Below are positions 17,990 through 64,000 of a stretch of 64,000 nucleotides of DNA, one piece after another. The position numbers and the translations under genes were made by a program. Where the stretch lies: the IMG/VR virus record IMGVR_UViG_3300044712_002690, positions 1 to 64,000 of that record; one strand, written 5' to 3'. The notes beneath the pieces are model-generated. The model was not told the DNA's origin and searched no databases. It was given only the letters and a program-made list of their open reading frames with translations. How positions within the stretch are numbered: position 1 is the first letter of the stretch; each line of letters begins with the position of its first letter. Source of the DNA: a virus.

Positions 17990-18253
17990 TTAGTCTGCAA
18001 ATGGAGTACCATGTAAATCTGTATAATACTCTATTGCGCCTTCAACCGCATTTATTATTCTAGGATCAGTAACTTCTGCTCCTAATTCATCAGTGATAGT
18101 ATGCTCAGGAAATTTTGCAGTATAAATATTATTTTCAACATTTATTTTCCAAACTTCTGTAACTGCTACGCTAATGACATTTTTATCATTGACATGAATA
18201 TAATCTTCACCAGCTAATTTTTTGTAAAATTGATCTAAAACTTGTGATTTCAT
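17990..18253 (-). CDS. Small leader-bearing protein between tube and chaperone genes
   Basis: The 87-residue protein starts 'MKSQVLDQFYKKLAGEDY', almost the same as the start of the plus-strand gene at 59682. The remainder is a short alpha/beta domain. Its ATG lies just 2 bases from the stop of the tube gene, so it should be expressed at tube levels. The shared leader suggests a common targeting or processing signal rather than a common function. The family is unknown. Confidence 0.65.
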   Translation of the reverse strand: MKSQVLDQFYKKLAGEDYIHVNDKNVISVAVTEVWKINVENNIYTAKFPEHTITDELGAEVTDPRIINAVEGAIEYYTDLHGTPFAD

Positions 18254-19138: not shown

Positions 19139-21445
19139 CTATACAGAAATACTATATTCACCTTCAGAATATTTATGAGTGTAAATACTGTAATAACTGT
19201 ATCTAAAGTTAACAGTATCTCTTCTATCTGTTGGAAGTTCAACACTAATTTGATCAATCTCTTCAATAATCTTTTGATTGAGATAATTCTTGAATAAATC
19301 ATTTAAGAATTTCTCAACTGTAGATTTATAAATTGGTCTATTCGTGATAAGTCTTCCAGTAAATGTTCTATCAATCTGAATGGCGACGTCTCTAGCAATA
19401 TAATGTTTGGCACAGATAATGTTAATATTATTCTTTTCAACACTTGTATTATCTGTAGTTAAATCATCTATAACAACTAGAGCGTCATCTGTACCTAAAC
19501 CAATTAGGAATGCACTAGCAGCTCCACCAAGTTTAAGCATCTCATCAGTATAATAATCTTCATAATCCTCATTAAACAATTCGAGACCCGGAATCGTATT
19601 TCTCATAATTGTTTGTGCTGGATATGAGAATGAATCATGATAAGCTGCTACTGCTGCTCCAATGAAAGAACCATCAACTGTAGTAGCTGTATCTAACTTA
19701 GTTGTAGGATCTTTATAGTAGTAAATTGCTCTTGTAGCATTTACAAAGACAACTGCTTCATTCCTTAAACTATATGCAATTCCTAATACTGAATTAGCAT
19801 CAGACGAATCACCAAGAGAAGTAAGTGCAGGAGCTCCTGTAAAGTACATTCTATATCTTCCATTAGAAGGAAGATTTCTTTCGTTTACATGAAGTATTAC
19901 TGCATTTCTTACTGTCGTAGTACTATTTAAGACTCCTAATGTTTGAATATTCCTATGTTTACATTTTTGTAATGCAGCAACATAGTCACTATTCTGATTA
20001 GAAGGAGGAACTTGAACAGTAGCTATTTTAGGTACACCATACCATTGTAATGCTAAATTAGCTATCATTACAAGAGGATTATCTGGAACATCATCTCCTA
20101 AATCATCTAATACACTTTGGTAATCATTAAATTCTTTATACTTATAGTCATCAGTTGGTCTATTATAAGTATATGTTACAAAGTAATTTCCATTAAAGCC
20201 AATCTTTGGAATAGTTGTAATAGTAAGAACTGTTCCAACCGTAAGCGCATCGAGTTCGCTCTCAACACCAGTTAGTGTAATCGAAGTATCCGCTGCTACT
20301 AAATCATCTCCTACACCAAATGTATATGTGTTCATTCCAACAGTAGCTGATACTTGAACAAATCCAGGTGTACGAGCGAAGATAACCCCACTCGCTAATG
20401 TAAATATCATTTGTCCATTAGCTGCTACGCGTTCAGTTCCGGCTGCTAATGTAACTGTAGATGATGTCCCTGTAGTTGTGTTAGTAATTCTAATATCGCT
20501 ACCAGATACAGCACAAGTAAATCCAGCAGTTGTAATCTGTGCATGAATTAATGCTGCAACAGCAGTATATGTTAATGTACTGGCTGTTAAAATAGAATAC
20601 TCGGTTCCATTAAGTCGGAAATAGTATCTTGTAGTCGCAGCTAAACCAGAAGCATCTCCTCCTGAAATAGTCATACCAAATTCTTGATAGCCTGATGTAG
20701 CATCAGCTCCAGCAACAGCTGTATCAAATGCTGTCCATCCTGTAAGTGATGCAAATAAGTCTGTTCCAGATGTTCCAGCTGCAAGAGTAACATCATTTCC
20801 TGCACCAGCTGTAGTATTTGTAAATCTAATGTCATTAGTTACAAATGTTGCTCTTGCAGGAGCGCCACCATTAATAAGTGCAACATTAATTGCATTTACT
20901 ACATCTGCATAACTTGTAAGAGCAGCACCTGTACTTGTTGTACTAAATGCATATTCAGTGCCGTTTACTTTGAAGTAATAAGTGTCTCCACTTAATCCAG
21001 CATTAACAGTACTAACAACATCTAAACCTGCTTCTTGATAACCAGGAGTAGCAGCAACGCCGCTTACTGCTGTATCTAATGCACTAAATCCAGTCATAGA
21101 CTCAAATAGGTCATAACCTTTAGTACCAGAAGCAATAGTTTTTGTTTCAGTATTGATAACCCAAGTTACTTCTCCGGTAGCTGTATTTACAGTAAAATCT
21201 ACATTTTCCTGTAAATCATTAAGTCCAATTTGTGATCCCGCAGATTCAATTTCATATATACCAGTAGTATAATATGTTAACTGATCTACATATCCAGATG
21301 AAGTTCTAGTAACCTGCTCGTTCTTAACTCTTTTATAAGGACTAGCGGCGCCTATAAAACAAGGCACTCGTTGTGAACTAGTTGGATTAGGAGTTGCGGT
21401 TTGATTTATCTCGGTGATTGTCACACCAGGTAGTGAATATGCCAT
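19139..21445 (-). CDS. Tail sheath protein with two inserted repeat domains
   Basis: The 768-residue protein starts 'MAYSLPGVTITEINQT', the classic sheath N-terminus, and ends with a sheath C-terminal domain ('DVAIQIDRTFTGRLITNRPI' through 'ELPTDRRDTVNFRYSYY'). The contractile core is in the C-terminal half ('VDGSFIGAAVAAYHDSFSYP'). Between about residues 104 and 336 it carries two tandem copies of a roughly 115-residue Thr/Ala/Gly-rich beta domain, which would decorate the outside of the tail. A strong terminator follows. Good SD (AGAAGGAGA) precedes the ATG. Confidence 0.9.
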   Translation of the reverse strand: MAYSLPGVTITEINQTATPNPTSSQRVPCFIGAASPYKRVKNEQVTRTSSGYVDQLTYYTTGIYEIESAGSQIGLNDLQENVDFTVNTATGEVTWVINTETKTIASGTKGYDLFESMTGFSALDTAVSGVAATPGYQEAGLDVVSTVNAGLSGDTYYFKVNGTEYAFSTTSTGAALTSYADVVNAINVALINGGAPARATFVTNDIRFTNTTAGAGNDVTLAAGTSGTDLFASLTGWTAFDTAVAGADATSGYQEFGMTISGGDASGLAATTRYYFRLNGTEYSILTASTLTYTAVAALIHAQITTAGFTCAVSGSDIRITNTTTGTSSTVTLAAGTERVAANGQMIFTLASGVIFARTPGFVQVSATVGMNTYTFGVGDDLVAADTSITLTGVESELDALTVGTVLTITTIPKIGFNGNYFVTYTYNRPTDDYKYKEFNDYQSVLDDLGDDVPDNPLVMIANLALQWYGVPKIATVQVPPSNQNSDYVAALQKCKHRNIQTLGVLNSTTTVRNAVILHVNERNLPSNGRYRMYFTGAPALTSLGDSSDANSVLGIAYSLRNEAVVFVNATRAIYYYKDPTTKLDTATTVDGSFIGAAVAAYHDSFSYPAQTIMRNTIPGLELFNEDYEDYYTDEMLKLGGAASAFLIGLGTDDALVVIDDLTTDNTSVEKNNINIICAKHYIARDVAIQIDRTFTGRLITNRPIYKSTVEKFLNDLFKNYLNQKIIEEIDQISVELPTDRRDTVNFRYSYYSIYTHKYSEGEYSISV
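20438..21136 (-). repeat. Tandem domain repeat inside the sheath gene
   Basis: Residues about 104-223 and 223-336 of the sheath are two diverged copies of one domain. Matched landmarks are 'DLFESMTGFSALDTAV' with 'DLFASLTGWTAFDTAV', 'YYFKVNGTEY' with 'YYFRLNGTEY', and 'NDIRFTNTTAG' with 'SDIRITNTTTG'. The repeat is visible at protein level and is not an exact DNA repeat. Confidence 0.85.
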
Positions 21446-22573: not shown

Positions 22574-23326
22574 TTATCCGTTTAATTCTGCTTTCGCTTG
22601 ATTAAGATACATTACTGCTCTTTTAGCATCCTCTAATGTTAAAAAACTAATTGCTTTTTCTATATTTTTATTTACATTAGAAAATGGTAATAAATCTTCT
22701 ACCAGATTTATCAATGGACTAGCTCTATCAGGATTTCTATTATTACTTCTTATTATATATAATACAATATCAATACTTGAAAGCGCGCTATTAATTATAT
22801 TTTGAGGATTATCTTGATCAGTATAATCCTCAGGTCCATCTTGCATTGCATAAAGCTCACCTTGAAAAAATCCAATAGTAAATAGAAATTTTTTAGCTAA
22901 TTCAGGTTCATACCAACTAACATCTTGTGATTCTTGAAATGTAAGCTCTGGAGTTGAATATATTTTGACTGCATCTTCAAATGGTTCAAGAGGACTAAAT
23001 TCAATAACAAAAAGAACAGAAACAAGATCTGCAACAAATTTTTGAAGTAATGGACTAGTTTGAAAAGCATCTTGGTCAGTAAAGAAAGCATGGAGTAAAG
23101 AAATTAAATAATTATTTGCTTCTTCTATAAAAGACTTACGACTACCTGTATTTACAAATAAAGATTCATAAGTTTCAGGTTTTGTCATACGACCAATCTT
23201 ACCTTGCACTATTTCAGTAAGAAGAGTATTAGTATCAACTTTTAGTGATTCGGGTGGGTCGTTTGTGGAAGATAAAGATATAACTTCCCCAGATAGTCTT
23301 GTATAAAAGATGTCAAATTTATCCAT
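22574..23326 (-). CDS. Unknown protein with the FYxRLSG leader
   Basis: The 250-residue protein begins 'MDKFDIFYTRLSGEVISL', a variant of the leader found on several small proteins in this genome. The rest is mainly helical and acidic ('NYLISLLHAFFTDQDAF', 'DLVSVLFVIEFSPLEPF'). Its ATG overlaps the stop of the upstream gene by one base (TAATG). It lies among neck and tail genes, so a virion-associated role is plausible. No family was recognised. Confidence 0.6.
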   Translation of the reverse strand: MDKFDIFYTRLSGEVISLSSTNDPPESLKVDTNTLLTEIVQGKIGRMTKPETYESLFVNTGSRKSFIEEANNYLISLLHAFFTDQDAFQTSPLLQKFVADLVSVLFVIEFSPLEPFEDAVKIYSTPELTFQESQDVSWYEPELAKKFLFTIGFFQGELYAMQDGPEDYTDQDNPQNIINSALSSIDIVLYIIRSNNRNPDRASPLINLVEDLLPFSNVNKNIEKAISFLTLEDAKRAVMYLNQAKAELNG

Positions 23327-29726: not shown

Positions 29727-30173
29727 TTAACGATAGAGTGAAGAAAATAAGAATGATATATTTATTGTGTTTTCATTTTCTTGAAAATTAGTTACTTTTA
29801 CTGTAACAGGATTTAGAGCATCTGTTCCTGGAAATTCTTTATGAAACACTTCAGAAAATACATCATATAAGTAGTCGAGTAAAAATTTACCATGTTCACT
29901 TTGTTTAAAAAAGTTTAATATGTTTCCATATTTTAACATAAGTAAATCCCAATCTGACTTACTTCTTTCTATGGAGCCGTCCATCTCAACAGATGCATCT
30001 AATACACTATCATCAACTTCTGAATCCACTTCTGGTCCATTACTGAAATTAATTTGTTCAATAAATAATTGTTCAATTGTATCCATTTCATCAGAATCTA
30101 ATTCAATATTCTCTGCTGCATATATTTTAAGTAGCTCATCAACTGTTTTTATATTTTTTAATTCCATACTCAT
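29727..30173 (-). CDS. Small acidic protein, function unknown
   Basis: I start this at the ATG at 30173 ('MSMELKNIKTVDELLKIYA', 148 residues) because it overlaps the TGA of the upstream membrane peptide in an ATGA. A longer frame exists upstream but would run through that peptide. The protein is strongly acidic in the first 75 residues and mixed alpha/beta after that. The family is not recognised. Confidence 0.6.
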   Translation of the reverse strand: MSMELKNIKTVDELLKIYAAENIELDSDEMDTIEQLFIEQINFSNGPEVDSEVDDSVLDASVEMDGSIERSKSDWDLLMLKYGNILNFFKQSEHGKFLLDYLYDVFSEVFHKEFPGTDALNPVTVKVTNFQENENTINISFLFSSLYR

Positions 30174-33371: not shown

Positions 33372-34553
33372 TTATGCCATCCAAGAAGGCACAGTAGCGC
33401 TAGATTTGATAGCACATGCAATTGCTCTTGGGTTAAGAACAACCTGGCTGATTTGCTCAAGGAATAGCCATCCGTATGAAGGATAACCAAACACGAACTG
33501 GTCAGCAGGGAAGACGCTCAGCTCAACACGAACTGGCATAGCACCAAGATAACGTCCTTCAGTTACTGCAAAGATCATACCAGCAGGAACAGAAACGTTT
33601 TCAAGGCCTTGTTCGTCAACACCAGCAGTTACATATACATTAACGCCCCAGATCGAACCAAAGACACCTGTTAAGAGAAGATCTCTTGAAGTGATAGGAT
33701 CGAAATCGATAGCGTTAACATTTTTCTTCAGGTCGCCAAGTTCTTGACGATTCATGAGGAATTTGTCAACTTGCAGACGATGTCTTTCAACTTCATACTG
33801 TAAAGTTTCAAGAACTGATTTCGACACTGTAGAAGTAACATTAATAATGTCATTCTCAAGTGCAGCAGCGCCATAAAGCGACTTCAGTCCCTGACGGTCT
33901 TCTGTCAGCATGATTTGGAAGGTCGTCTTGTCGTGTGTACGCTCAACAACGTCAAACTGTCTTTGAGCAATCTCGCTAACAGTAATTTTTGGTTGAGCAG
34001 TAACAAGAAACTCAGGAGGGAACACTCTGTTACCACGAACTTGGCTACCAATCGTTTGTCCGTCTTCGTTTGTCACGAGGGCAGTAACGTTGATATCTTT
34101 TTCGTAGCTATTAACTTGTCCCTGAGCTAAGTTGTGCGTACGGAATACCTGGCGGATGAAACCTTCATAGTCCAGACGGTCCAGGACAAGGGGAATCATC
34201 TCAGAACCGAAACGAAGTCTCTCCTCAGGAGAACCTGAAAGAGCGGCTTGTACGATTTGCTGTTTTTCTTCTTCAGTATAGTATGGTTTGTTATGAGCCA
34301 CACGATACTTTTCTCTCATAGCAGCAAAATGCTGGAGTTGCGTAATAGCATCAGCTTTGCTGCTAGCATTAAGTTCACCACTAGCATTAAACAGTCTGGA
34401 ACCGCTTCTTTGTGCACGACCATTCGTGTCAATTCCACCGTAAGCTTTGGGGTCAAGAAGATTCTCGTCATAAATACGAGAAGCAACTTTAGTAGCTTTT
34501 TCGCTGGCTGTTTTCTGCATTACTTCTTTCTTATTCATACCATCAGACCACAT
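33372..34553 (-). CDS. Major capsid protein
   Basis: The 393-residue protein lies between scaffold/decoration genes and a strong terminator, with AGGAGG upstream of its ATG. The sequence fits an HK97-type capsid subunit. It has an N-arm with 'QKTASEKATKVASRIYDE', a P-domain helix 'VSKSVLETLQYEVERHRLQ' and a late 'DLLLTGVFGSIWGVNVYVTAG' of the A-domain. Local base composition is richer in G and C than the neighbours, as often seen in highly expressed genes. Two 'TAS'/'VAS' sites in the first 24 residues could be maturation cleavage sites. Confidence 0.85.
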   Translation of the reverse strand: MWSDGMNKKEVMQKTASEKATKVASRIYDENLLDPKAYGGIDTNGRAQRSGSRLFNASGELNASSKADAITQLQHFAAMREKYRVAHNKPYYTEEEKQQIVQAALSGSPEERLRFGSEMIPLVLDRLDYEGFIRQVFRTHNLAQGQVNSYEKDINVTALVTNEDGQTIGSQVRGNRVFPPEFLVTAQPKITVSEIAQRQFDVVERTHDKTTFQIMLTEDRQGLKSLYGAAALENDIINVTSTVSKSVLETLQYEVERHRLQVDKFLMNRQELGDLKKNVNAIDFDPITSRDLLLTGVFGSIWGVNVYVTAGVDEQGLENVSVPAGMIFAVTEGRYLGAMPVRVELSVFPADQFVFGYPSYGWLFLEQISQVVLNPRAIACAIKSSATVPSWMA

Positions 34554-37478: not shown

Positions 37479-38888
37479 TTATTCTTCTTTTAACACATCA
37501 AACAATGTAGGACTATTTCCCGATGTGCTACCTGCAGGTTTTACAGGCTTACTCATTTCTGGCTTACCCATTTCAGGTTTAGCTTCTTCTGGTTTTTTAG
37601 GTTTTGTCTTTTTAAGATCTGGAACTTTTATATTCTCTTTAGCAATTTCTTCAGAACCATCTTCTTTTTCGTTTATAATAATTGTAGTAGCTAATTTTTT
37701 AAGAGCAAATATAGCATTATCAAGTGCTTGTTTTCTTAATTGATTATCAATATTATGCCCAACAAATTTACCAGTTTTAATTATTCTTTCTGCATCACTG
37801 TGAATAGCTTGTTTTAATAAATCCTTATATTCATTATTAATAGCTAAAGATTTTTCCCATTTATCATATACACTTGATAATTTGTTTATACCACTATAAT
37901 TAGCAACATATTTCCAAAAACTATTAGCGTACTCGGAAAACTTTTCTTTATTTGTATCAATATCATGTAAAATAGATGCATATTGAGAAATAATTGCTTC
38001 TGCTTCGTTCTTAACATCAGTTTCACTAACTTCTTTTGCTATTTCTTCTAATTCTGGAGTTTTGCTTAAGATTTGACTAACATCATATGGAGTGCCTTGC
38101 ATTCCAACTTGATGAACAAGCTTATCCGCTTCAAACGAAGCTGCTTTTAAAATAACATCTTCTCCAGGTAATCCTGATCCAATATAAACTTGTTTTAACT
38201 TTTCTACTACTTGATTTATTTGTTCTTGAGTAGCTCCTTCTGTTAGAGCTATTGGGCGAACTACATCCATAAGCCATTCTTTAGTTTCATTATATTCATT
38301 ATGTCCCTGTTCTTCTGGTGTACTATAGTCAGTTTCTGGATTAGAAGAAAAATATTCAACTAATCTGTCCTTTATTTGATTAACAAACTCATCTATATTA
38401 AAAGGTTCACCCGAAGGGGCAGACGTTTGTACAGCAGGAACAGTTGCTTGACCAGGAATACCTGGAGTAATTTCTGCAGCACGAAACTTTCTATCGGTAG
38501 CGGGTTCTTTTAGATATGTAACCAAGTTACTAATCTTAGCTGCTTTTTCAAGAAGTATTTGATCAATATCCATTGTATCTGCCCCTAATTTAGTTACTAA
38601 TTCTTCAAATGCTTTAGTATACCCTTGCTCATTTGGAGTTTTCCAGGTAATGTGTAATCTTATTTCATTCTCAAATGCTTTATCAGTATGATATCTTTCT
38701 TTATGACTTTTTATTAAATCATGAACTTCTTTTTTAGTTCTTACAAATACCTCATCGGTTTTTTGACCAAAATCAAAAACTTCAACAGAATAACCTTGAC
38801 CAAACTGAGAGCCTGGGGCTAACTTTTTTATTATAAGTTCTGTCCCCTGACCAGCAGTGTTAGGATCTCTACCAGCAAGTTTAATCAT
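37479..38888 (-). CDS. Head-region protein between protease and scaffold
   Basis: The 469-residue protein starts 'MIKLAGRDPN' and overlaps the protease stop by 4 bases. The first 100 residues are alpha/beta, the middle is helical, and the C-terminus has a Lys/Pro/Glu tract with 'KPEMGKPEMSKPVKP' repeats, like the scaffold. 'LEKAAK' and 'LKAAS' sites occur. It may be a second scaffold component or an internal head protein. Confidence 0.55.
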   Translation of the reverse strand: MIKLAGRDPNTAGQGTELIIKKLAPGSQFGQGYSVEVFDFGQKTDEVFVRTKKEVHDLIKSHKERYHTDKAFENEIRLHITWKTPNEQGYTKAFEELVTKLGADTMDIDQILLEKAAKISNLVTYLKEPATDRKFRAAEITPGIPGQATVPAVQTSAPSGEPFNIDEFVNQIKDRLVEYFSSNPETDYSTPEEQGHNEYNETKEWLMDVVRPIALTEGATQEQINQVVEKLKQVYIGSGLPGEDVILKAASFEADKLVHQVGMQGTPYDVSQILSKTPELEEIAKEVSETDVKNEAEAIISQYASILHDIDTNKEKFSEYANSFWKYVANYSGINKLSSVYDKWEKSLAINNEYKDLLKQAIHSDAERIIKTGKFVGHNIDNQLRKQALDNAIFALKKLATTIIINEKEDGSEEIAKENIKVPDLKKTKPKKPEEAKPEMGKPEMSKPVKPAGSTSGNSPTLFDVLKEE

Positions 38889-39760
38889 ACTAATGCTTCT
38901 AATCTCGATATAACTTTATCTAATTGTCCAGCAAGTCTACGTTTTTCTTGTGTTGTATTTGCTTTAGATATCATTCTATAAACAGTATCTATAATTTCTG
39001 TTTCATACATTCCATTCTCTTCAGCTACTTTTAGTAATCTACCGGGAATGATTTCAGAAACAGCATCAATTACATAAGCTTTAGGGGCAGCAGGAGAAGA
39101 TACAACTGATAGTTCAAAGAAATCTACACCACGAAGAAGTTCAGCAACTTTTTTACCTTCTTTTCTTCTGCCACGTGAAAACTTTAAACATTCACAAATA
39201 TCAGCTTCTCTTAATAACTCTCTTCCACAACAAGTACAAACAGAATGTGTAATTGAACATCCCATAGAAACAGGAACACGTGTAGGATATTTTACTAAAT
39301 CTCTTGAAATGTGAGGCGCTTTTATTTTATCAATACCAAATAATGTAGTAACATGCATATCTTCATATGGATTTTTAATAAAAACAGAATCAAATACAAG
39401 CCCAATAGAATTTTCTATTCTATCGGATTCATGATTTTTATACATTCCTGCTTTTCTAAAAGTTAAATATCTTGCGATTCCTTTGTCTTGATGAATTTCA
39501 TCAAGTTCTGTTAAATCAAAATAATCAGAATTTTTATTTACTGCATGTTCCCATAAGCTGGATTTATTCATTTTACCATAATAGTCACCAGCATCTAACG
39601 CGCGAGTTGTAGCATAGACATAATCTTCTACAGCTTTAGATATAATCATTTCATCTCTTTTATCATCAATGAGAGAAGCGATTTTTTCCTTATCCTTAGA
39701 GCTAAATTCTTTAAACTCTCTAGGTTTAAGCTGCTTCAAATACATATTATCTCTTTCCAC
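38885..39760 (-). CDS. Prohead maturation protease
   Basis: The 291-residue protein starts at GTG (39760), with GAGGAG upstream. The central part has 'VPVSMGCSITHSVCTCCG', then 'ICECLKFSRGRR' and 'VDFFELSVVSSPAAPKAYVI'. The order S-M-G...C-x2-C...C-x-C...E-x-S-V-V-x-x-P-A-x-P-x-A is characteristic of head maturation proteases of large phages, and the Cys cluster may bind zinc. It would cleave scaffold and head proteins once the prohead is complete. Gene order (portal, protease, scaffold, capsid) agrees. Confidence 0.75.
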   Translation of the reverse strand: MERDNMYLKQLKPREFKEFSSKDKEKIASLIDDKRDEMIISKAVEDYVYATTRALDAGDYYGKMNKSSLWEHAVNKNSDYFDLTELDEIHQDKGIARYLTFRKAGMYKNHESDRIENSIGLVFDSVFIKNPYEDMHVTTLFGIDKIKAPHISRDLVKYPTRVPVSMGCSITHSVCTCCGRELLREADICECLKFSRGRRKEGKKVAELLRGVDFFELSVVSSPAAPKAYVIDAVSEIIPGRLLKVAEENGMYETEIIDTVYRMISKANTTQEKRRLAGQLDKVISRLEALV

Positions 39761-41635: not shown

Positions 41636-44600
41636 CTATACTAAATTCTCGTATGCTTTAAGTAAATCTTCATTAAGTGTTTGTGGATAGTCAATCCACT
41701 TTCTAAATCCTTCTTTAAATCTTTGTAATTCATCTTGGAAATCTTTATTTAAGCAATGTCCTGAAGGATCCCAAACTCTACCATGAATCAATTTAGAGTC
41801 TACTTGTCCTCTTTTTATTGTATCTTCTGCTAAAGTAAATCCTTCTACTTGATTGTTATTTCCGTAAACAATATCTAGCATACCAAGAAGTCGATATGTT
41901 TCTAACTCTTCTCTATTAAGATCATAACTTGGTTGTCTAAATGCTTTTCTAATTTGTTTTTCAGCATCATCAGTTAAGAAATCACAATGTCTAATAAATA
42001 GTGAAGCCAATGATTCGTTTTCTTGTGCAACCCATCTTGATACATATAATGATGAACCTATAATAGAGAAAGGAATGTATCCTCTATGCTTCATCTTTTC
42101 TTGTTGCAATCTAGAACTAATCATTAGATTACGAAGATTCTGTCCATTCTCATCATTAGGAATGTTTGTTAATTCTTCTGCTATTTTAGCTTTTTGTGAT
42201 TCTTCCCATTCTTTCATATCAATAATGTCTTTTACAAAGACAATTTGATTGAATTTATTCTTTCTTGGCATCGAACATATTTTAGAAAATAGTCTTTTTG
42301 TTGCTTCTATTAAATCAATTGGACAATCAATTACTTTAATATCCTCTACATAAAAGTCTCGATATCTTTGAACTTGACTATCTAATTGATTACCAAAATC
42401 TTCATCAGCCCCTTCAGTAGCAGGTGAAGCAAGACAAATTTCTAATCCTGGTGATAATAGGAAGCTAACATTTCTACCTTTATTTAGTAATTCTTCAGTA
42501 GGAAATACTTCGCCATCTTTACCATATACGTTTTCTATCTTTACATTATAGATGCCTTGTTCATTATATCCTTTGAATTGACCGAAGCAGAAAGCACTTA
42601 TACCTATTCCTTTTATGTGAGATGCAAATTTTTCTGATCCTGTGCTAATAGCTTGATGTATCCAGTTTTCAATATCATTACAAACAACTAAGTCACTATA
42701 TCCTTTAAAATCTTTTTGCTGAGAGTATGGAATAAATCCTGTTCTACCGTATGCATACAATTTACCTTGCATGTATAATTTAACAAGAACTTCTTGTAAA
42801 TTATCAAAACTAGCTTCTTTAGTAGATAAACTAGCTAGTTTATGTAATAGCATTGTTACTGGTCCTGGAATTTGTTCTGATTTTAAATTCCTACTCCATA
42901 CTTCATTATCAATATTATCAACAAAACTAGATGTAGCTAATTCACTTTCCGCTTCTCGTTTAAATACTTCATCAACATGTAAATAAGTAGCTTTTGAATT
43001 ATCTCTAGGAAGAATGGTTTTGCGCTCTTCTACCAACTCATTATCAACTAATTGTGTTTGTTGATCTTTTCCTTTCTTAGTTTTCCAGAAGGGCAGTTTA
43101 GATAATGCTTGAGCCATTCCAGGCATACCAACAGAAGGTGCTGGTGGCTGTATATATACACCAATCCTTTCTTCAAGCTGTTGTTGATGTTTCTTTCTAA
43201 CTAATTCATCCTCAAGATCAAGACCCATTGATTGCATTAGTGTTAATGCTGATAAAGGACCTTTACCCTGAGCATATACGTTATTCATAAAAGTTAAGAA
43301 TGCTTGATCATCTCGCATCATTAACTTCTTATGCCAAACTAATTTAGGAAGGATAAGTCTTTCTTGGAGTTCTTTTCCTTCTCTTTTTACTCTAAATTGT
43401 CCTGTAATCTCTCTTTTATCTCTACGATACCATTCGTTTCTTTCAGCCATTACTTTAAAGAATTTATTTTGAATCCATCTTACTTCAAATAAATCCCTTT
43501 TAGCACGATAACGAGCAAGTTGTGTTTGTAATCCTACGTTAGCAGAAGCATATGTAGTCTCACCTGTCATAAATTGCTGGCTAACACCAAGAGCAATCAT
43601 TTTTTTACGATTGATCTCATCCCATTCACGGTCAAGTTTCATTACTTTATCAGCAACAGTGACATAATCTACATTAAGAGCATAATGGTAAATTAAAGCA
43701 AAGTTAGGATCAAATGTTGCTTGCTGTAGCATTTGAGCTAAAGCAGTTTGGTGAGATTCATTAGGAATCCAACCTTTCTGGGGATCACCAAGTTTAAATA
43801 TCTTTAATGGATAAATAAAGTTATCAGCGATAGTTATTTGAGATTCACGTAACTTGTCTTCATACATAAGTAATCTAAACAAACGATCTATGATAGATGT
43901 GCCACGAAGATCGTAAGGATTACTTCTACGTGCAATATGTGTAACTTCTTCAGAATCAAGAATAATATTCTTTCCAGAAAGAACACGACGAATAATTTCT
44001 TGAGGTAACCTTCTTTTTAATTCTTGATCTTGAGGTTTAGTAGAATTTACTAAGTGTTTAAGTTCATCATCAGGAAGTAATTCAATAGAATATTCTTGAT
44101 CAGCAAAAGGACTAGCAGATAATTCTACGAAATCAGGATTATGAATAATAATGTGTTTCCACATTCCTTTTTCATTATCCCAAGGTGTATTAATAAATAC
44201 TTCACCAATTTTAAGATATTCTAAGTCAATAAGAGGAAGCATAGAAAAGAACTGTGTTGCATCAATACAATCTTCTAAAGCTTGTTTAATCATGTTATCA
44301 TCACACATAATCTCAGCTTTAGAATAAGGAAGCTCAGCATGTAAATCTAAAACAGCTCCTACAACTTCATCATGATCATAGAACCATCTACGCCATCTAT
44401 TCTTTTGTTTAATACTTCTAGGAAGATAAATAGCGGTTGTAGTAACTTCTGGATCGTAAAAACGTCTAGAAGAGTTTCTAAGGATGTTAAGTCCACCGCT
44501 AGCCATACTGCTTGATAATCCAAGAGCAGCTAAACTAGAAAGACTAGAGCTTGTTGAAGCGCCAGTTTTATCTTCCCTTTCTGCATATACACTGGACCTA

Positions 44601-44665
44601 CCAGTTATAGATCCAGGTAAAAGGTTTTGGAAATTATCGTAGTTAGATTGTCGTTTCTTTGACAT
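41636..44665 (-). CDS. Portal protein (long form)
   Basis: The 1009-residue protein has the portal core in its first 520 residues. Landmarks are 'RWFYDHDEVVGAVLDLHAEL', 'TSIIDRLFRLLMYEDKLRES' and 'KMIALGVSQQFMTGETTYAS', which match portal proteins of large myoviruses. The C-terminal half (about residues 600-1009) is an additional alpha/beta region, so the protein is about twice the usual length. Portals form the dodecameric gate through which DNA is packaged and ejected. 'KLASLSTKEAS' near residue 625 marks the junction between the halves. Confidence 0.8.
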   Translation of the reverse strand: MSKKRQSNYDNFQNLLPGSITGRSSVYAEREDKTGASTSSSLSSLAALGLSSSMASGGLNILRNSSRRFYDPEVTTTAIYLPRSIKQKNRWRRWFYDHDEVVGAVLDLHAELPYSKAEIMCDDNMIKQALEDCIDATQFFSMLPLIDLEYLKIGEVFINTPWDNEKGMWKHIIIHNPDFVELSASPFADQEYSIELLPDDELKHLVNSTKPQDQELKRRLPQEIIRRVLSGKNIILDSEEVTHIARRSNPYDLRGTSIIDRLFRLLMYEDKLRESQITIADNFIYPLKIFKLGDPQKGWIPNESHQTALAQMLQQATFDPNFALIYHYALNVDYVTVADKVMKLDREWDEINRKKMIALGVSQQFMTGETTYASANVGLQTQLARYRAKRDLFEVRWIQNKFFKVMAERNEWYRRDKREITGQFRVKREGKELQERLILPKLVWHKKLMMRDDQAFLTFMNNVYAQGKGPLSALTLMQSMGLDLEDELVRKKHQQQLEERIGVYIQPPAPSVGMPGMAQALSKLPFWKTKKGKDQQTQLVDNELVEERKTILPRDNSKATYLHVDEVFKREAESELATSSFVDNIDNEVWSRNLKSEQIPGPVTMLLHKLASLSTKEASFDNLQEVLVKLYMQGKLYAYGRTGFIPYSQQKDFKGYSDLVVCNDIENWIHQAISTGSEKFASHIKGIGISAFCFGQFKGYNEQGIYNVKIENVYGKDGEVFPTEELLNKGRNVSFLLSPGLEICLASPATEGADEDFGNQLDSQVQRYRDFYVEDIKVIDCPIDLIEATKRLFSKICSMPRKNKFNQIVFVKDIIDMKEWEESQKAKIAEELTNIPNDENGQNLRNLMISSRLQQEKMKHRGYIPFSIIGSSLYVSRWVAQENESLASLFIRHCDFLTDDAEKQIRKAFRQPSYDLNREELETYRLLGMLDIVYGNNNQVEGFTLAEDTIKRGQVDSKLIHGRVWDPSGHCLNKDFQDELQRFKEGFRKWIDYPQTLNEDLLKAYENLV

Positions 44666-47895: not shown

Positions 47896-48267
47896 TCAAC
47901 TAATTGTTGAATAAGGAATTTTATCTTTATGGAGTTCTTGATATCTTCCTAATCCAGGTGTGCCTAATTCTTCTTCATTTATACTATCGTTAGTTTCAGT
48001 GTCTATAGTACTTAAACTATTTTTACAACTCATGTCACCGTATTCAGTAGCATATTTAGAAAAGTCTTCATAACACTTAAAAAATCTAAAAGAAGAAGTT
48101 CTTTGTCCTGTTGGTTCAGAAACTAATTCAACTTCTTCTCCTCTATTTCCAGTAACAGGTTTTATATCTTCAGAAGAAGATTGAGGAGTCATAAAAGGAT
48201 GAGATGTATTATCATCTGCCTTTTTAACTAACTCCTCAAAGCTTCTTATAGTAGAAAATAATATCAT
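47896..48267 (-). CDS. Small unknown protein
   Basis: The 123-residue protein is polar, with a helical start 'TIRSFEELVKKADDN' and a short aromatic segment 'FRFFKCYEDFSKYATEYG'. Its ATG overlaps the stop of the upstream gene by one base (TAATG). It has no recognisable family. It may belong with its two large neighbours. Confidence 0.5.
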   Translation of the reverse strand: MILFSTIRSFEELVKKADDNTSHPFMTPQSSSEDIKPVTGNRGEEVELVSEPTGQRTSSFRFFKCYEDFSKYATEYGDMSCKNSLSTIDTETNDSINEEELGTPGLGRYQELHKDKIPYSTIS

Positions 48268-58678: not shown

Positions 58679-59359
58679 TTGAATATTCTTAATCTAACAG
58701 ATAGTGGTTTTACAAGAGTATTTGTTGTTGGTAGTCTTAATGGAGATTACTTTAAACTTATTGATTTGCTTTATGAGCAACAATTTACATATAGCGATGG
58801 TTTAGTACTTTGTGGTAATTTTGTAAATCAGGAATCTGATAATTTATTTGATATTTTTCATTTTTTAAAGAATAATAAGAATTGTTTTTCCGTTTTAGGA
58901 AAAAATGAAGTTGATTTTGTAGAAGCTTATAAAGAAGATAAACTACCTGAATTTTTACAAACACTAGTAGACACAGCGATTATTGAATACTTAGAAACAC
59001 TACCTTTAGCAATACAATTTGATAACTTTTTAGTTGTTAACGCAGGTATAGAACCTTCCAAAGAACTCCCAGATCAAGACGATAAAGTGTTTTATTCAAT
59101 TCCTTTATATGATAGGGAATCTAGGTATTATCAGTTTGAAAATCCAGAAAGTAAGTCCTGGTTTGATTTTACATTTGATCCATTAAAAATCTGCTTTACA
59201 AATAATTCTATTGAAGAAACAACAGTTGAAGCAGGATATAACTTAAAATCTTCCACATCAAATTTAGTTTGTCTAATTATAACGCCACAAAACGAAGTTC
59301 CTGTTATCATATCTGTAGAAGATAATATTTTAAAGAACAATTATGAGGTTAGACCGTGA
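58679..59359 (+). CDS. Calcineurin-like phosphatase homologue that has lost its metal ligands
   Basis: The 226-residue protein, read from a TTG start, aligns by eye with lambda-type PPP phosphatases: 'VFVVGSLNGDYFKL' (residues 14-27) for the GDxHG motif, 'GNFVNQE' (46-52) for GDxVDRG, 'GKNE' (74-77) for GNHE, and 'VNAG' (120-123) for the HAG motif. In each, the metal-binding Asp or His is replaced: S19, N21, N47, N50, N76, N121. It should be catalytically dead and may instead bind a partner. A hairpin over its SD suggests regulated translation. Confidence 0.75.
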   Translation: MNILNLTDSGFTRVFVVGSLNGDYFKLIDLLYEQQFTYSDGLVLCGNFVNQESDNLFDIFHFLKNNKNCFSVLGKNEVDFVEAYKEDKLPEFLQTLVDTAIIEYLETLPLAIQFDNFLVVNAGIEPSKELPDQDDKVFYSIPLYDRESRYYQFENPESKSWFDFTFDPLKICFTNNSIEETTVEAGYNLKSSTSNLVCLIITPQNEVPVIISVEDNILKNNYEVRP

Positions 59360-59676
59360 GATCAAGATTCGATGCTGACAGATTTGTAGAAAGATTAGCA
59401 GCTTCACAAGAAGTTATGTCTTTTGAAGTAGTAGAAGATTTATATGATTTTTCAGGAAATAATGCACAATTTCTTATACAGTTAGGTGTTGTAGGCCAGT
59501 ATGAAGTAAATCAGTTTTTATTTAAGAAAAAAGGACAAAGATTTGTTCGTATTGGTGAAAATACGTATGAAGCAGGTTCCCTTGTTTCGGGGTCAGGAGA
59601 ATCAGCAGTTTGGAATATTACTTCAGATGAAATAGAAGATTTAGTATATAGAAATTTAGTTAAAATAGTAGGGTAG
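59356..59676 (+). CDS. Small protein with leader-like start
   Basis: The 106-residue protein starts at GTG (GAGG upstream), overlapping the preceding TGA. The opening 'MRSRFDADRFVERLAASQEV' is a relaxed version of the shared FYxRLAG leader. The rest is alpha/beta, with 'FVRIGENTYEAGSLVSGSG' near the C-terminus. Its last codons are repeated at DNA level in front of the gene at 60274. Function unknown. Confidence 0.55.
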   Translation: MRSRFDADRFVERLAASQEVMSFEVVEDLYDFSGNNAQFLIQLGVVGQYEVNQFLFKKKGQRFVRIGENTYEAGSLVSGSGESAVWNITSDEIEDLVYRNLVKIVG

Positions 59677-59689
59677 TTAATATGAGAAG
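59648..59689 (+). repeat. Duplicated 42-bp segment, copy 1
   Basis: ATAGAAATTTAGTTAAAATA is identical to 60240-60259. The next 22 bases, through ATGAGAAG, match at 17 positions. Here the segment is the coding end of the gene at 59356 plus the start of the gene at 59682. Confidence 0.8.
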
Positions 59690-60233
59690 TCAGGTTCTTG
59701 AACATTTTTATAGACGATTATCTGGCGAAGATTATGCAGCACCAGGATCTTCAATGTATCTTTCAGTAGAAGAAATTGCTAAAATATTATTTGGTGGAAT
59801 GCCTGGAATTATACAAGAATTTATAACATATCAAATTCTGGAGCATTTTAAAGATACAAGTTTTACTGATGACGACGATATGTATTATAATATAGAAGAT
59901 AAAGCGCTACTTGCATTTTTAGACTTACTTAAACAAGACGGAGAATTTTTTAAAGTAAGTAATAATTTAGAGGAATCTTTAAAGTTTGTTCGTGATCCCG
60001 ATGAATATATGCAATCTTTGTTAGATGATGGCATATCAGAGGATTATATTGATACTATGTATCATGTTGTTGGGATAGGACCTTCTTTTGAGAATCTTCC
60101 TCCGATTATTAATTACGTTAATGTTCCTGTAGTTACAGGATCGACAGCTGGTACTCATAGAGAAGCAACAGTACCTGCGCTAGTAACAGTCGATGGTGAT
60201 TTACTTGTAACAAGCTCATCGTTGGAAATTTAA
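59682..60233 (+). CDS. Leader-bearing protein, function unknown
   Basis: The 183-residue protein starts 'MRSQVLEHFYRRLSGEDY', which matches the minus-strand gene at 18253 at nearly every position (M-K/R-S-Q-V-L-D/E-x-F-Y). After the leader the two proteins are unrelated. The body is acidic with helical and beta parts. AGGG precedes the ATG. The leader is discussed as a possible targeting or cleavage signal. Confidence 0.6.
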   Translation: MRSQVLEHFYRRLSGEDYAAPGSSMYLSVEEIAKILFGGMPGIIQEFITYQILEHFKDTSFTDDDDMYYNIEDKALLAFLDLLKQDGEFFKVSNNLEESLKFVRDPDEYMQSLLDDGISEDYIDTMYHVVGIGPSFENLPPIINYVNVPVVTGSTAGTHREATVPALVTVDGDLLVTSSSLEI

Positions 60234-60239
60234 TATTTA

Positions 60240-60281
60240 ATAGAAATTTAGTTAAAATAACAGGATAGTTATCATGAGAAG
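60240..60281 (+). repeat. Duplicated 42-bp segment, copy 2 (remnant gene end)
   Basis: This copy of the 59648 segment lies between genes. It still reads as the end of a vanished gene (N-R-N-L-V-K-I-T-G-stop) before the ATG at 60274, so a local duplication happened and most of one copy was lost. Confidence 0.75.
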
Positions 60282-60987
60282 ACAAACCATAGAAGATTTT
60301 TATAGAAGGTTAGCAGGCGATCCTATAGATAAAACTAAAAATAATCCAATCAGACCTGTTGCTGGAGATTTTGATAAATTTGAATTAAACACCTCTAATT
60401 ATATGGATCTTTTACAGCCTGTTATTGATGATTATAAAGAGAAGGATTCAAGAAAGTATGAGGATATGGAAGAGCAACTTAAATCTGTTACAGATATAAA
60501 TGGGACTCCTATTGATCAATTGCACCCTTATGATCTTAACAGTTCTTCTTTTTCACAAGAAGCATTTTTATTGTTTAATTCTATATTTAATATTTCTGCA
60601 TTTGACTCTGATCTTTCATTAGAAGAAAACCTTGAGGCTCTTAAGTTTGATGAAATGGAGGATGTACCTGATAAACATTACCATGACGGGTATAGAGAAG
60701 AACACAAAAATTATAATCATATAATAGAATTTACTCAGATGGATGCAGATACTTGGGTGGAATTAAGTGTTTATCAAGATAAAAACACTGGTGAGATATT
60801 TTATTATGAAGAAGGAGATTTAAGAAGAGCAGACCCTCCTATGACATTAGATAAACTTATTTCTTTATTAAATGACATGGCTAGTCTATCTCCTCCAGAT
60901 AAACAACTTGATCCAGATGCTCCATCTGCTGCTTCTGAGGTTCAGAGATGGATGAGTAATATGAATTTTACTGCTGAATTAAATTAA
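60274..60987 (+). CDS. Leader-bearing protein, function unknown
   Basis: The 237-residue protein starts 'MRRQTIEDFYRRLAGDPI'. After the leader it is acidic, with a beta section 'WVELSVYQDKNTGEIFYYEE' near residue 170. AGGA precedes the ATG within the duplicated 42-bp segment. Function unknown; the leader links it to its neighbours. Confidence 0.6.
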   Translation: MRRQTIEDFYRRLAGDPIDKTKNNPIRPVAGDFDKFELNTSNYMDLLQPVIDDYKEKDSRKYEDMEEQLKSVTDINGTPIDQLHPYDLNSSSFSQEAFLLFNSIFNISAFDSDLSLEENLEALKFDEMEDVPDKHYHDGYREEHKNYNHIIEFTQMDADTWVELSVYQDKNTGEIFYYEEGDLRRADPPMTLDKLISLLNDMASLSPPDKQLDPDAPSAASEVQRWMSNMNFTAELN

Positions 60988-61021
60988 TTTTTATTGAAAG
61001 AATAATGGGATACATTTAGTT

Positions 61022-61846
61022 ATGTTACATTTTAAAAATTTTGCTCAAGGTGTTCTTGATGATTCAGATGATGCTAGAATTTGGGATTATCTTGATGAAC
61101 TGCTTCCTATTGTACTTTTAGAAGGAGAAGTAATGGATGAAAGTCCTGAACAGCCTTCAGAACCCATAGAATTACCTTATACTAATTTAAGACCATTAGA
61201 ATTAAAAAAAGGAGCTAAAGTTATAGCTGATATAGAAACAGAATATCCTAATGAATATGATTATATTATTGTATATAATGATTTTATTTATGTTACAGGT
61301 ATTGTAACAGGAATGACTAATATTGGGCCTATATCAGAATTAGATTCTGTTCTTAGTTTATTTGAAAAATATGCAGGTACTTTTTCTCTTATGGAAACAG
61401 ATTTTGAAGATGAAGAAATAGATGAGAGTAAAAAAATCTATCATTCTATTGAAAATAGAAGAAACAAACAGTTACAGGAATTTTATAAGAAATTAGCTTC
61501 TGTTCCAACATATAATCTTACTTGTGTAATACATGGTGGAATACTTCCTGATGGTACTCAAATTTTTACAAATGAAGAAGTAAATGAATTATGGAATCAG
61601 TTAAAACTTTTACTTCCTATAGAAGACACAGATTTAACTTTAGACGCATTAGAAGAAAAAGGTAAAATTATTGCAGAAGTATCTACATCATACAGACATG
61701 CAAAAGGTGCTGCAGGTGAAGATTATATTATACTATTTGGTGATTATGTAATTTTTACTGATTATGATTCTGGTGTTTTTCAATTAGGACCAAGAGAGAA
61801 TGCAGAAGCAGTATTAGACTTATTGAAAAAATATTCATGTGATTAA
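61022..61846 (+). CDS. Two-domain protein from an internal duplication, with an internal leader
   Basis: The 274-residue protein has two similar halves. 'KKGAKVIADIETEYPNEYDY' with 'IIVYNDFIYVTG' in the first matches 'EEKGKIIAEVSTSY' with 'DYIILFGDYVIFTD' in the second. The second half begins with a full leader, 'RRNKQLQEFYKKLAS' (about residues 144-158). So two leader-bearing genes appear to have fused. If the leader is a cleavage signal, the protein could be cut into two domains. The fold is alpha/beta, family unknown. Confidence 0.6.
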   Translation: MLHFKNFAQGVLDDSDDARIWDYLDELLPIVLLEGEVMDESPEQPSEPIELPYTNLRPLELKKGAKVIADIETEYPNEYDYIIVYNDFIYVTGIVTGMTNIGPISELDSVLSLFEKYAGTFSLMETDFEDEEIDESKKIYHSIENRRNKQLQEFYKKLASVPTYNLTCVIHGGILPDGTQIFTNEEVNELWNQLKLLLPIEDTDLTLDALEEKGKIIAEVSTSYRHAKGAAGEDYIILFGDYVIFTDYDSGVFQLGPRENAEAVLDLLKKYSCD

Positions 61847-61864
61847 TATTATAGGAGAATAAAA

Positions 61865-62407
61865 ATGGCTATTGAAAAAGAATATTATGTTCCTCTGTAT
61901 AGACTTGCGGTATCAAAGATACCTGAAGACTATAGATTGCAGCAAATCAGCGAGTGGCTTGCTAAAAATGCTCTTAAAGTTTCTAACCAAGCAGTTAGAG
62001 AAAGCTTTAAACGTGCAGGAAGAAAAGATCTTGTTGATGTATTTTTACAACAAGAAGATATTAGTGTTAATGATGTTGTTAAATCAAGATCAACTGGAAG
62101 ATTTGGTACTGTTGTTAAAGAGCATTGGGATGGCGAAACTGTTACAGTTAAATGGGATTCAGGTGGACAACAGCCTCTTTCTAAAGGATCTCTTTTTAAG
62201 ATACATGAAAAGAAAGAAGAGAGACTTGATAAGAATGATGTAGTTTTAGCAAAGTCAGACACAGAAGCATATGAAGAAATGACTGATAAGAAGAAGCAGT
62301 TTATTGAAATGAAAGATAACATGGCAAAGGAAAAAAAGAATAAATCTGCTTCTGAAGTAGAATACGAAACTTGGGTAAAATCTAAATTGTACAATGAAAG
62401 CAAGTAA
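61865..62407 (+). CDS. Protein with SH3/KOW-like domain
   Basis: The 180-residue protein has a helical N-terminal half and then 'VNDVVKSRSTGRFGTVVKEH' with 'GETVTVKWDSGGQQPLSKGS', a typical SH3-like/KOW pattern for nucleic-acid or protein binding. The C-terminal third is a charged helix. GGAG precedes the ATG. The opposite-strand frame across it is a shadow. Confidence 0.55.
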   Translation: MAIEKEYYVPLYRLAVSKIPEDYRLQQISEWLAKNALKVSNQAVRESFKRAGRKDLVDVFLQQEDISVNDVVKSRSTGRFGTVVKEHWDGETVTVKWDSGGQQPLSKGSLFKIHEKKEERLDKNDVVLAKSDTEAYEEMTDKKKQFIEMKDNMAKEKKNKSASEVEYETWVKSKLYNESK

Positions 62408-62696
62408 TAGAGAAAGATGTCTTGAATCTCTTTATGAGTTAATTAAGAAGATAGATGCTGAGAGATCTGAAAATGATCTCTTAGACACATCTTCGGATTA
62501 TTATCAAGATTTTAATTCTAAAGATAGAATTAGAGCTTTATTAGTAAAGCTTCATTCTTATTTTAATGGCGAATTAATGTTGTCACAAAGAGATATAGAT
62601 GAAACTTGGAATGAGGTTAGAACTTACTTATATAATTCAGGTTCTAATTTGCCTATAATTTATAATGTTATTTTAGCATGTAGTTTAGACGCATAA
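62394..62696 (+). CDS. Small helical protein
   Basis: The 100-residue protein overlaps the previous gene by 14 bases. It is helical and acidic ('CLESLYELIKKIDAERS'), with a final hydrophobic stretch 'LPIIYNVILACSLDA'. No SD of note, so coupling is likely. Function unknown. Confidence 0.5.
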   Translation: MKASNRERCLESLYELIKKIDAERSENDLLDTSSDYYQDFNSKDRIRALLVKLHSYFNGELMLSQRDIDETWNEVRTYLYNSGSNLPIIYNVILACSLDA

Positions 62697-62713
62697 TTTA
62701 CTAGGATATTGTT

Positions 62714-64000
62714 ATGAACTATTTTGATTTTTACCTGCGTTTATCCGCTGTAACTATTTCAAAGTTGCATGAGAAATATCAAGATCAAATACCTTTAGAA
62801 GATTTAGAAGGTATTATAAGATCAGACCCTACTTATCCAGGTGGAGATCAAGTAGGATCATATGGTCCTTGGTTAGTAAAACAATATCTACAAGGATCTT
62901 TTGATTTATCTATGTCAAATGAAATGATAACATTACTAAATGAATTTACACGCTATAAACCTAATTTAGAAAAGAAAGATATATATACGTATCAATCTGT
63001 TGATGAACTACATCAAGCAGTAGCACCTTTTATTTACTATCAACCTAACGAAGAAGAAACTTCAGCAGAACCAAGCATACTTTATGATGATGGTATTTGG
63101 GTTGCAGTTAAACCAAATACATTTGAAGAAGAATGTTTTTATGGGCAAAAAACTACATGGTGTACTAAAAGTAACTCTTCCATGTTTCAAAAGTATCAAG
63201 GAAATCTTTTTATTATAATAAATAGAAAAGAAAATAAAAAGTTTCAATTTGATCTTAAAGATTATCAATTTAAAAATGAAAAAAATCAAGAGGATCTTGA
63301 AGGATTTTTAAATTTAAATCCACCACAAGAACTCCTTACTTCATTAGGAATACAAGATATTCTTACTCCTCCTGCTACAGCACCTGAACTTAGCCAAGTA
63401 CAAGTAGCTGTACAAGAAAGAATTTCTAAATTTCTTTCTTTAAATCAAGATAATGAAAAAATGCTTGCAGAAGCATTATCTGTTGTAAATATTCCATTTG
63501 ATAAAGCTGATTCACTAGAAACATATAACGCAATATCAAATACAAAAGCAGTTCGTATGCACTATCTACAAAAAATGATACAAAATACTCCTTCTCCTAC
63601 AATTGATATAATAGAATCCCTAGCGCAGGATCCTAAGTATGTTCTTCTTGATAATGCACTTAATTATTTATATTATAGAAATTCTGCTATTACTACGTAT
63701 CAAAATATAGCTAATCCTTCAACTGGCTCATTTAGAGATAAAGCACTTAGACTAAATAAAGATCCATTTGATGAAGCAGATAAACGTCATATTCATACTG
63801 TAGATATAGAAAATAATACAATAAGCAAAGATAGACGTGTAAGCGATCTTGTTAAAGAAATTACAATAGATTCACCTAAATGGAAAGAATTTGGAAAAGA
63901 TGGTGAATTATTTACAAGTAACATTCCTAGACGATTAGTTAAAGAGATAAGAGCATTTGAGGAAGATGAATATAGTGAACACAACAAATATATGGAAGCT
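62714..64000 (+). CDS. Leader-bearing WCT-motif protein, cut by the window end
   Basis: An open frame runs from the ATG at 62714 (AGGA upstream) to the window edge, 429 codons without a stop. It begins 'MNYFDFYLRLSAVTIS', again the leader. About residues 125-185, 'GIWVAVKPNTFEEECFYG', then 'TTWCTKSNSSMFQKYQGNL' and 'FIIINRKENKKFQFDL', match a family of phage proteins with a W-x-V...P-x-T...C-x-Y-G-x-x-T-x-W-C-T core, often found near replication or head genes. Its function is unknown. The remainder is helical. Confidence 0.7.
   Translation, partial: MNYFDFYLRLSAVTISKLHEKYQDQIPLEDLEGIIRSDPTYPGGDQVGSYGPWLVKQYLQGSFDLSMSNEMITLLNEFTRYKPNLEKKDIYTYQSVDELHQAVAPFIYYQPNEEETSAEPSILYDDGIWVAVKPNTFEEECFYGQKTTWCTKSNSSMFQKYQGNLFIIINRKENKKFQFDLKDYQFKNEKNQEDLEGFLNLNPPQELLTSLGIQDILTPPATAPELSQVQVAVQERISKFLSLNQDNEKMLAEALSVVNIPFDKADSLETYNAISNTKAVRMHYLQKMIQNTPSPTIDIIESLAQDPKYVLLDNALNYLYYRNSAITTYQNIANPSTGSFRDKALRLNKDPFDEADKRHIHTVDIENNTISKDRRVSDLVKEITIDSPKWKEFGKDGELFTSNIPRRLVKEIRAFEEDEYSEHNKYMEA

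What the first reader, a model, noticed from the sequence alone, without database searches (positions are those of the whole stretch)
59356..64000. Shared N-terminal leader on unrelated proteins from distant operons
MKSQVLDQFYKKLAGEDY (18253, minus), MRSQVLEHFYRRLSGEDY (59682, plus), MRRQTIEDFYRRLAGDPI (60274), MNYFDFYLRLSAVTIS (62714), MDKFDIFYTRLSGEV (23326, minus) and an internal RRNKQLQEFYKKLAS (61022 gene) share F-Y-x-R/K-L-A/S-G/A/S. The parts after the leader are unrelated. A short amphipathic leader on otherwise unrelated proteins is how T4 marks internal proteins for capsid delivery and protease cleavage. If so, a set of rightward genes encodes proteins injected with the DNA.
Basis: partly seen in the sequence, partly recalled or inferred. 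Interest (0 to 1): 0.8.

Follow-up and report, generated by a model that had tools for sequence, protein, structure and literature searches.

The report
Shared N-terminal tag on phage proteins
A large uncultivated phage puts the same short N-terminal peptide on at least seven proteins (one related pair among them) whose remaining parts are otherwise unrelated, most likely an address label that loads them into the virus head as phage T4 does with a different label, but nobody has yet looked for these proteins in the virus particle.

Summary
In the 178,984-bp phage record the motif F[YFVL]x[RK][LIVM][ASG] occurs 8 times in N-termini and 5 times elsewhere (0.32 N-terminal hits expected). The 62714 and 65029 proteins are homologous to each other; the other bodies are unrelated. 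Relative G003 carries the leader in the same gene slots behind different bodies.

Function is inferred. The 62714/65029 domain is widespread: a PA5oct homologue was found in virions by mass spectrometry, and in other phages 37 of 44 clusters start with a peptide bearing a T4-type [ILVF]xE site (26% of other genes). AlphaFold puts the leader outside the folded domain. The same test run on T4 recovers the known IPII/IPIII capsid-targeting sequence. Sister phages G001/G002 use another leader on a nucleotidase and other proteins; nucleotidase orthologues exist with and without it.

Best reading: a lineage-specific capsid-targeting tag with exchangeable cargo. T4-type cleavage is not supported: the P1 glutamate is not conserved. 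Capsid location, processing and injection are untested. New variant of a known kind.

The parts
18200..18253 (-). Leader MKSQVLDQFYKKLAGEDY of the 87-aa gene 17990-18253, between tail tube (18256-18930) and the gene at 17290-17964
   Evidence: G003 has a leader gene with a different body in the same slot
17990..18253 (-). Leader gene 13 (87 aa, orphan)
   Evidence: no family match, no homologue in G001-G003
23282..23326 (-). Leader MDKFDIFYTRLSGEV of gene 22574-23326 (250 aa, orphan)
59356..59409 (+). Weak leader MRSRFDADRFVERLAASQ of gene 59356-59676 (106 aa)
   Evidence: individually near chance level
59682..59735 (+). Leader MRSQVLEHFYRRLSGEDY of gene 59682-60233 (183 aa, orphan)
   Evidence: pair score 67 with the leader at 18253
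60274..60327 (+). Leader MRRQTIEDFYRRLAGDPI of gene 60274-60987 (237 aa, orphan)
59648..59728 (+). Direct repeat copy 1: 3' end of gene 59356-59676, start codon and leader of the next gene
   Evidence: 79% identity to copy 2
60240..60320 (+). Direct repeat copy 2: remnant of the same 3' end plus leader of gene 60274
61457..61501 (+). Internal leader RRNKQLQEFYKKLAS at the junction of two homologous halves of gene 61022-61846
62714..62761 (+). Leader MNYFDFYLRLSAVTIS of gene 62714-64339 (541 aa; runs past the window)
   Evidence: residues 1-10 pLDDT about 55, folded domain starts at about 14
62753..63343 (+). WCT module (DPT...PW.. and WCT motifs), residues about 14-210; widespread phage domain, MS-detected in PA5oct virions
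30114..30167 (-). Second-type leader MELKNIKTVDELLKIYAA of gene 29727-30167 (score above all controls)
48208..48267 (-). Second-type leader MILFSTIRSFEELVKKADDN of gene 47896-48267, near the portal gene
33372..34553 (-). Major capsid protein
   Evidence: phrog_2522 E 5.8e-56
34473..34496 (-). Clade-specific 8-residue insertion ATKVASRI in the capsid protein N-terminus, resembling the leader's end (KKLAS); a lead, not a proven site
   Evidence: present in G000, G003, L019; absent in G001, G002
38885..39760 (-). Putative head maturation protease
   Evidence: phrog_18299 E 4e-13
41636..44665 (-). Portal protein
   Evidence: phrog_16240 E 1.6e-76

Best explanation
The peptide M-[KR]-x-x-x-[LI]-[DEQ]-x-F-Y-x-[RK]-[LI]-[ASG] is a short amphipathic address tag. 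During head assembly it most likely docks its carrier onto the prohead core or scaffold, so that a changing set of small accessory proteins is enclosed with the DNA and delivered to the host at infection. The tag is kept by selection while the cargo behind it is duplicated, replaced or fused. Shown: the tag, its beyond-chance N-terminal sharing, its conservation in the same slots of a relative behind other bodies, its position outside the folded module in one carrier, and an analogous but different tag in sister phages. Inferred: capsid targeting. Speculative: injection, and any cleavage.
For: Sharing beyond chance. Same slots, other bodies in G003. Leaders of genes 17990 and 59682: 12 of 18 residues identical and the other 6 conservative, while 5 of the 11 identical residues after Met use different codons, so selection acts on the peptide. 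The WCT family: PA5oct homologue EST35_0205 was detected in virions by ESI-MS/MS; 37 of 44 clusters in other phages carry an N-terminal [ILVF]xE site against 26% of other genes and 19% of internal windows; in the best aligned relatives the site sits where the leader ends in G000. The leader lies outside the fold. T4 positive control: the same test ranks IPII/IPIII first among pairs not sharing a GIY-YIG domain. Sister phages: second leader on non-homologous proteins, with Pfam domains starting after it (NT5C nucleotidase, DUF5662; GNAT further in); nucleotidase orthologues with leader (G001, G002) and without (G000, G003). Some second-type leader genes lie beside portal and protease genes. T-even internal proteins are described as highly diverse with only a conserved CTS (PMC3012670).
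Against: No virion proteomics exists for this phage or a close relative. The FYxRLA form is known from two genomes only (G000, G003). No conserved protease site. Weak members (59356, 64352, 65029) are near chance one by one. Two leader genes lie in the tail operon, so tail loading is not excluded. The virion evidence concerns the WCT family, not the orphan cargo.
Confidence: 0.68

Rival explanations
1. The leader is a docking peptide for another assembly or host target (tail tube or tape measure, membrane, a host chaperone or protease) and not for the capsid core.
For: Two leader genes lie in the tail operon (17990-18253 next to the tail tube; 22574-23326). Peptide composition alone cannot tell the targets apart.
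Against: The WCT relatives have T4-type [ILVF]xE prohead-protease-like sites in the same place, which points to heads. Some second-type leader genes lie beside portal and protease genes. T4 ip genes are also scattered, in two loci (PMC12373910).
Confidence: 0.17
2. The leader is a relic of repeated copying of a 5' gene segment (ribosome site plus start) and has no function of its own.
For: An 81-nt direct repeat spans the 59682 and 60274 leaders and the 3' end of the gene before.
Against: The 17990/59682 pair keeps the peptide while synonymous sites have changed. G003 keeps it in the same slots although the bodies changed. The sister clade keeps another tag.
Confidence: 0.06
3. The leader is the first helix of one common folded domain that has diverged beyond recognition.
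For: Bodies are short, acidic and helix-rich; orphan proteins cannot be modelled well (pLDDT 37).
Against: The WCT module folds confidently from residue 14 on without the leader. Bodies of 49 to 520 residues show no similarity in pairwise comparison except within the WCT family. The related tag is absent from orthologous nucleotidases.
Confidence: 0.07

Closest known systems
T4 internal proteins IPI-IPIII and Alt with the capsid targeting sequence (CTS)
   Same: Short N-terminal amphipathic peptide on otherwise unrelated proteins, scattered loci, exchangeable bodies; found by the same pair test
   Different: Other sequence (T4 MKTYQEFIAEA); T4 peptides end in a gp21 cleavage site with P1 Glu, these do not consistently; packaging and injection shown only for T4 (PMC3012670, PMC12373910)
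P1 DarB N-terminal packaging signal
   Same: First 30 residues suffice to send a reporter into the capsid (PMC9024508)
   Different: In P1 no shared consensus among Dar N-termini was found by BLAST; here the consensus is explicit
Giant-phage ejection proteins with propeptides (SPN3US gp45, gp53, gp54; phiKZ)
   Same: Large phage, N-terminal segments on packaged proteins
   Different: Most propeptides there are over 100 residues and are cut after A-X-E or S/A/G-X-E (PMC5694885, PMC10052503); here 15-18 residues without a conserved Glu
PA5oct EST35_0205 and the WCT family (phrog_17056, phrog_28193)
   Same: Homologous module behind an N-terminal peptide; virion protein by MS in PA5oct
   Different: Leader sequence MKLFEVFTLYEDK there, MNYFDFYLRLSA here

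Membership tests
T4-type CTS / internal head proteins | Short N-terminal peptide shared by non-homologous proteins | tested here: met
   T4 control
T4-type CTS / internal head proteins | Cargo behind the peptide varies between related phages at fixed loci | tested here: met
   slots of 17990-18253 and of 59356-61846 hold other leader genes in G003
T4-type CTS / internal head proteins | Prohead-protease site with P1 glutamate ([LI]xE in T4; S/A/G-X-E in phiKZ) at the end of the peptide | tested here: not met
   LAGE/LSGE in 3 leaders and SQE in a fourth, LAGD, LSAV, IAAI, IGID in others; none in the three G003 leaders
T4-type CTS / internal head proteins | Phage has MCP, portal and a head maturation protease | tested here: met
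   (phrog_2522, phrog_16240, phrog_18299)
T4-type CTS / internal head proteins | Carrier proteins are inside the virion | not testable with these tools
   Indirect only: PA5oct homologue of the WCT carriers detected by ESI-MS/MS
T4-type CTS / internal head proteins | Peptide alone directs a foreign protein into the capsid | not testable with these tools
   Needs a cultured phage-host pair
T4-type CTS / internal head proteins | Carriers are injected with the DNA | not testable with these tools
   Needs infection experiments
WCT family (phrog_17056/28193) | DPT..PW and WCT motifs in one module | tested here: met
   genes 62714-64339 and 65029-66579

The most novel reading that the evidence does not exclude
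Each lineage of these large phages keeps its own short 'address word' for loading proteins into the head (FYxRLA in G000/G003, NFRKxxNINELIKKA in G001/G002, MKxF..[IL]xE elsewhere). The word, not the cargo, is what is inherited: unrelated orphans, enzymes (a nucleotidase, a GNAT-like protein, a DUF5662 protein) and WCT modules fused to repeat domains are placed behind it and removed again. Reading the word in any genome would then list that phage's injected effectors.
Probability: 0.4. Interest if true: 0.75.

Novelty: new variant of a known kind. Interest (0 to 1): 0.62.

Why it matters
Injected phage proteins are the first weapons against host defence, but their bodies evolve too fast to be recognised by homology. 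If the tag is the constant part, a comparison of N-termini across a genome would reveal the injected set of uncultivated phages, as it does for T4 in the control here, and would supply packaging tags for new phages. It also gives a handle on the widespread unannotated WCT module, which looks like a delivery-associated domain with variable C-terminal parts.

Tried and rejected
MCP cleavage at NASGE (a match to LAGE/LSGE): rejected, not conserved in relatives. K[LIV]AS as a protease site in head proteins: 12 in the proteome, 6 of them in head-region genes; suggestive but post hoc, kept only as a lead. De novo EM motif search on N-termini: dominated by a small paralogue array and overfitted. T4 late promoter TATAAATA upstream of leader genes: none found; expression time unresolved. 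Single-sequence fold of gene 61022: useless. PDB fold search of the WCT model: no match at E <= 0.001. DNA pattern of the repeat in IMG/VR: no hit. MCP search in bacterial and archaeal genomes for a host clue: nothing. More relatives via tail tube and gene 61865 profiles: only G001-G003 and fragments, plus a distant one, L155. DNA search of the region in phage records: nothing.
Full report
What the record is. The window is bases 1-64000 of a 178,984-bp virus record. I read the rest of the record and called 262 genes with a simple codon-model caller (start sites are my calls, not curated). The leftward half of the window is a structural module with a capsid protein, a portal and a putative head protease, tail tube and sheath genes (assigned by eye), and a long baseplate region. 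No match was found in annotated phage DNA. Three IMG/VR relatives were read whole: G003 (MCP 84% identical), G001 (70%) and G002 (68%).

The observation. The motif F[YFVL]x[RK][LIVM][ASG] is found 8 times within the first residues of a gene and 5 times elsewhere; from the internal rate 0.32 N-terminal hits are expected. Because the regex was made from these sequences, I also ran a test without any motif: every pair of first-20-residue peptides in G000 and between G000 and G003, with pairs whose bodies are similar removed. Two groups stand out: a small paralogue array outside the window, and this leader, with pairs up to 67; internal and shuffled controls never reached 45. The same test on T4 as positive control ranks the IPII/IPIII targeting peptide at the top together with GIY-YIG endonucleases, which do share a domain.

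Conservation without the body. In G003 the neighbours of the leader genes are conserved and in order, but the orphan leader genes have no homologue. G003 has leader genes of its own in the same slots: MQSRDLEVFYRKLAAD (69 aa) between tail tube and the next gene, MKINKDIEDFYNRLAAQD (98 aa) between the homologues of genes 58679 and 61865, and MRSKILQDFYTEL on a WCT protein nearby. BLASTP of the 87-aa window protein against the 98-aa G003 protein aligns only the leader. Pairwise profile comparison of the bodies finds relationships only within the WCT family. The leaders at 18253 and 59682 share 12 of 18 residues and differ conservatively at the other 6, while 5 of the 11 identical positions after Met use different codons: the peptide is what is selected. 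The 59682/60274 pair is different in kind: an 81-nt repeat at 79% identity covering the 3' end of gene 59356, the gap and the leader. This is a footprint of how a leader can be copied in front of a new body. Gene 61022 holds two homologous halves with a leader at the junction, as expected if two leader genes were fused.

The carriers that can be traced. Genes 62714 and 65029 share an N-terminal module of about 200 residues. A homologue in Pseudomonas jumbo phage PA5oct, EST35_0205, is annotated as a structural protein detected by ESI-MS/MS, and other MS-detected PA5oct proteins start with similar short peptides (MKINDIITEG, VKIKDILVES). A profile search found 473 relatives in IMG/VR. Of 44 clusters, 37 have [ILVF]xE followed by a small or polar residue within residues 4-20, against 26% of other genes in the same loci and 19% of internal windows: MDFLKLIQEGR, MKFSEYILESR, MRYREFLIEYN. 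In the best aligned relatives this site falls where FYLRLS ends in G000 (ELILE|AASLADVHEKYY and DFLFE|LATPLEIHDKYY against FYLRLS|AVTISKLHEKYQ). An AlphaFold2 model from 58 sequences is confident for residues 14-210 (pLDDT mostly 90-97) and not for residues 1-10 (about 55). So in this family a T4-like targeting peptide is the rule, and the G000/G003 lineage has put its own leader in that place. The module has no solved relative; BFVD neighbours include the PA5oct protein, leucine-rich-repeat and ankyrin proteins, and in other phages it is followed by variable parts such as leucine-rich repeats.

A second tag in the sister phages. G001 and G002 lack FYxRLA, but the same pair test there finds another shared N-terminus, MNFRKxxNINELIKK[AS], on ten G002 and two or more G001 proteins without body similarity. 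Pfam domains follow it: an NT5C-like nucleotidase from residue 22, DUF5662 from residue 26 (that gene also has an intein), and a weak GNAT match further in. The nucleotidase is the cleanest case: G001 and G002 versions have the 18-20 residue tag, while the G000 (gene 25306) and G003 versions start directly with the domain. Some tagged genes sit beside the portal and protease genes, and G002_186 has an internal copy. G000 itself has at least one strong member of this second type, gene 29727, and a probable one, gene 47896.

Mechanism. I take the tag to be a docking peptide for the prohead core, by analogy with the T4 CTS, whose carriers are described as highly diverse proteins with only the CTS conserved (PMC3012670), and with P1 DarB, where 30 N-terminal residues suffice (PMC9024508). 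The tag, its sharing, its conservation and its separateness are shown; targeting is inferred from the WCT family; injection rests on analogy. Cleavage is the weak part. T4, phiKZ and SPN3US proteases all cut after glutamate (PMC5694885). Three window leaders read [AS]-G-E, which fits the phiKZ rule, but most of the others and all three G003 leaders do not. So either these tags are not removed, or the protease of this lineage has another rule. A lead for the latter: the capsid proteins of the tag-bearing clade have an 8-residue N-terminal insertion containing KVASR, like the KKLAS end of the tag, absent in G001 and G002. With one evolutionary event behind it, this is only a hint.

Limits. Two genomes carry the FYxRLA form; gene starts are computed; no proteome of this clade exists; searches found no host. 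Three of the eight N-terminal members would not be convincing alone. My tail-gene and FtsZ-like assignments outside the cited searches rest on my own knowledge.

Noticed in passing
G000:169230-173339 (outside the window, minus strand): Array of about a dozen small ORFs (66-94 aa) starting with RxKTEEEFxKEFGxxWR and sharing LxGQRxP: a tandem paralogue family, also present in G003.
   Followed up: partly
window 61022-61846: Protein made of two homologous halves (34% over 76 residues), probably a fused tandem duplicate.
   Followed up: partly
L068-L146: WCT module: a widespread, unannotated phage N-terminal module (473 IMG/VR relatives) followed by variable parts including leucine-rich repeats; foldseek also links it to ankyrin proteins of marseilleviruses.
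   Followed up: partly
L049:7901-9613: G002 gene 56: leader plus DUF5662 interrupted by an intein with zinc-finger-like and weak HNH matches.
   Followed up: no
G001 genes 286-288 (about 177.9 kb): Adjacent proteins share the N-terminal sequence SMVDVITNSS without body similarity by BLASTP.
   Followed up: no
G000:89942-91030: Conserved protein starting VVGLGQCG, possibly FtsZ/tubulin-like; conserved in G001-G003; not searched against families.
   Followed up: no
L147:10803-12317 and 19281-19535: Virus Rctr197k, a distant MCP relative, has two annotated CRISPR arrays beside transposase genes.
   Followed up: no
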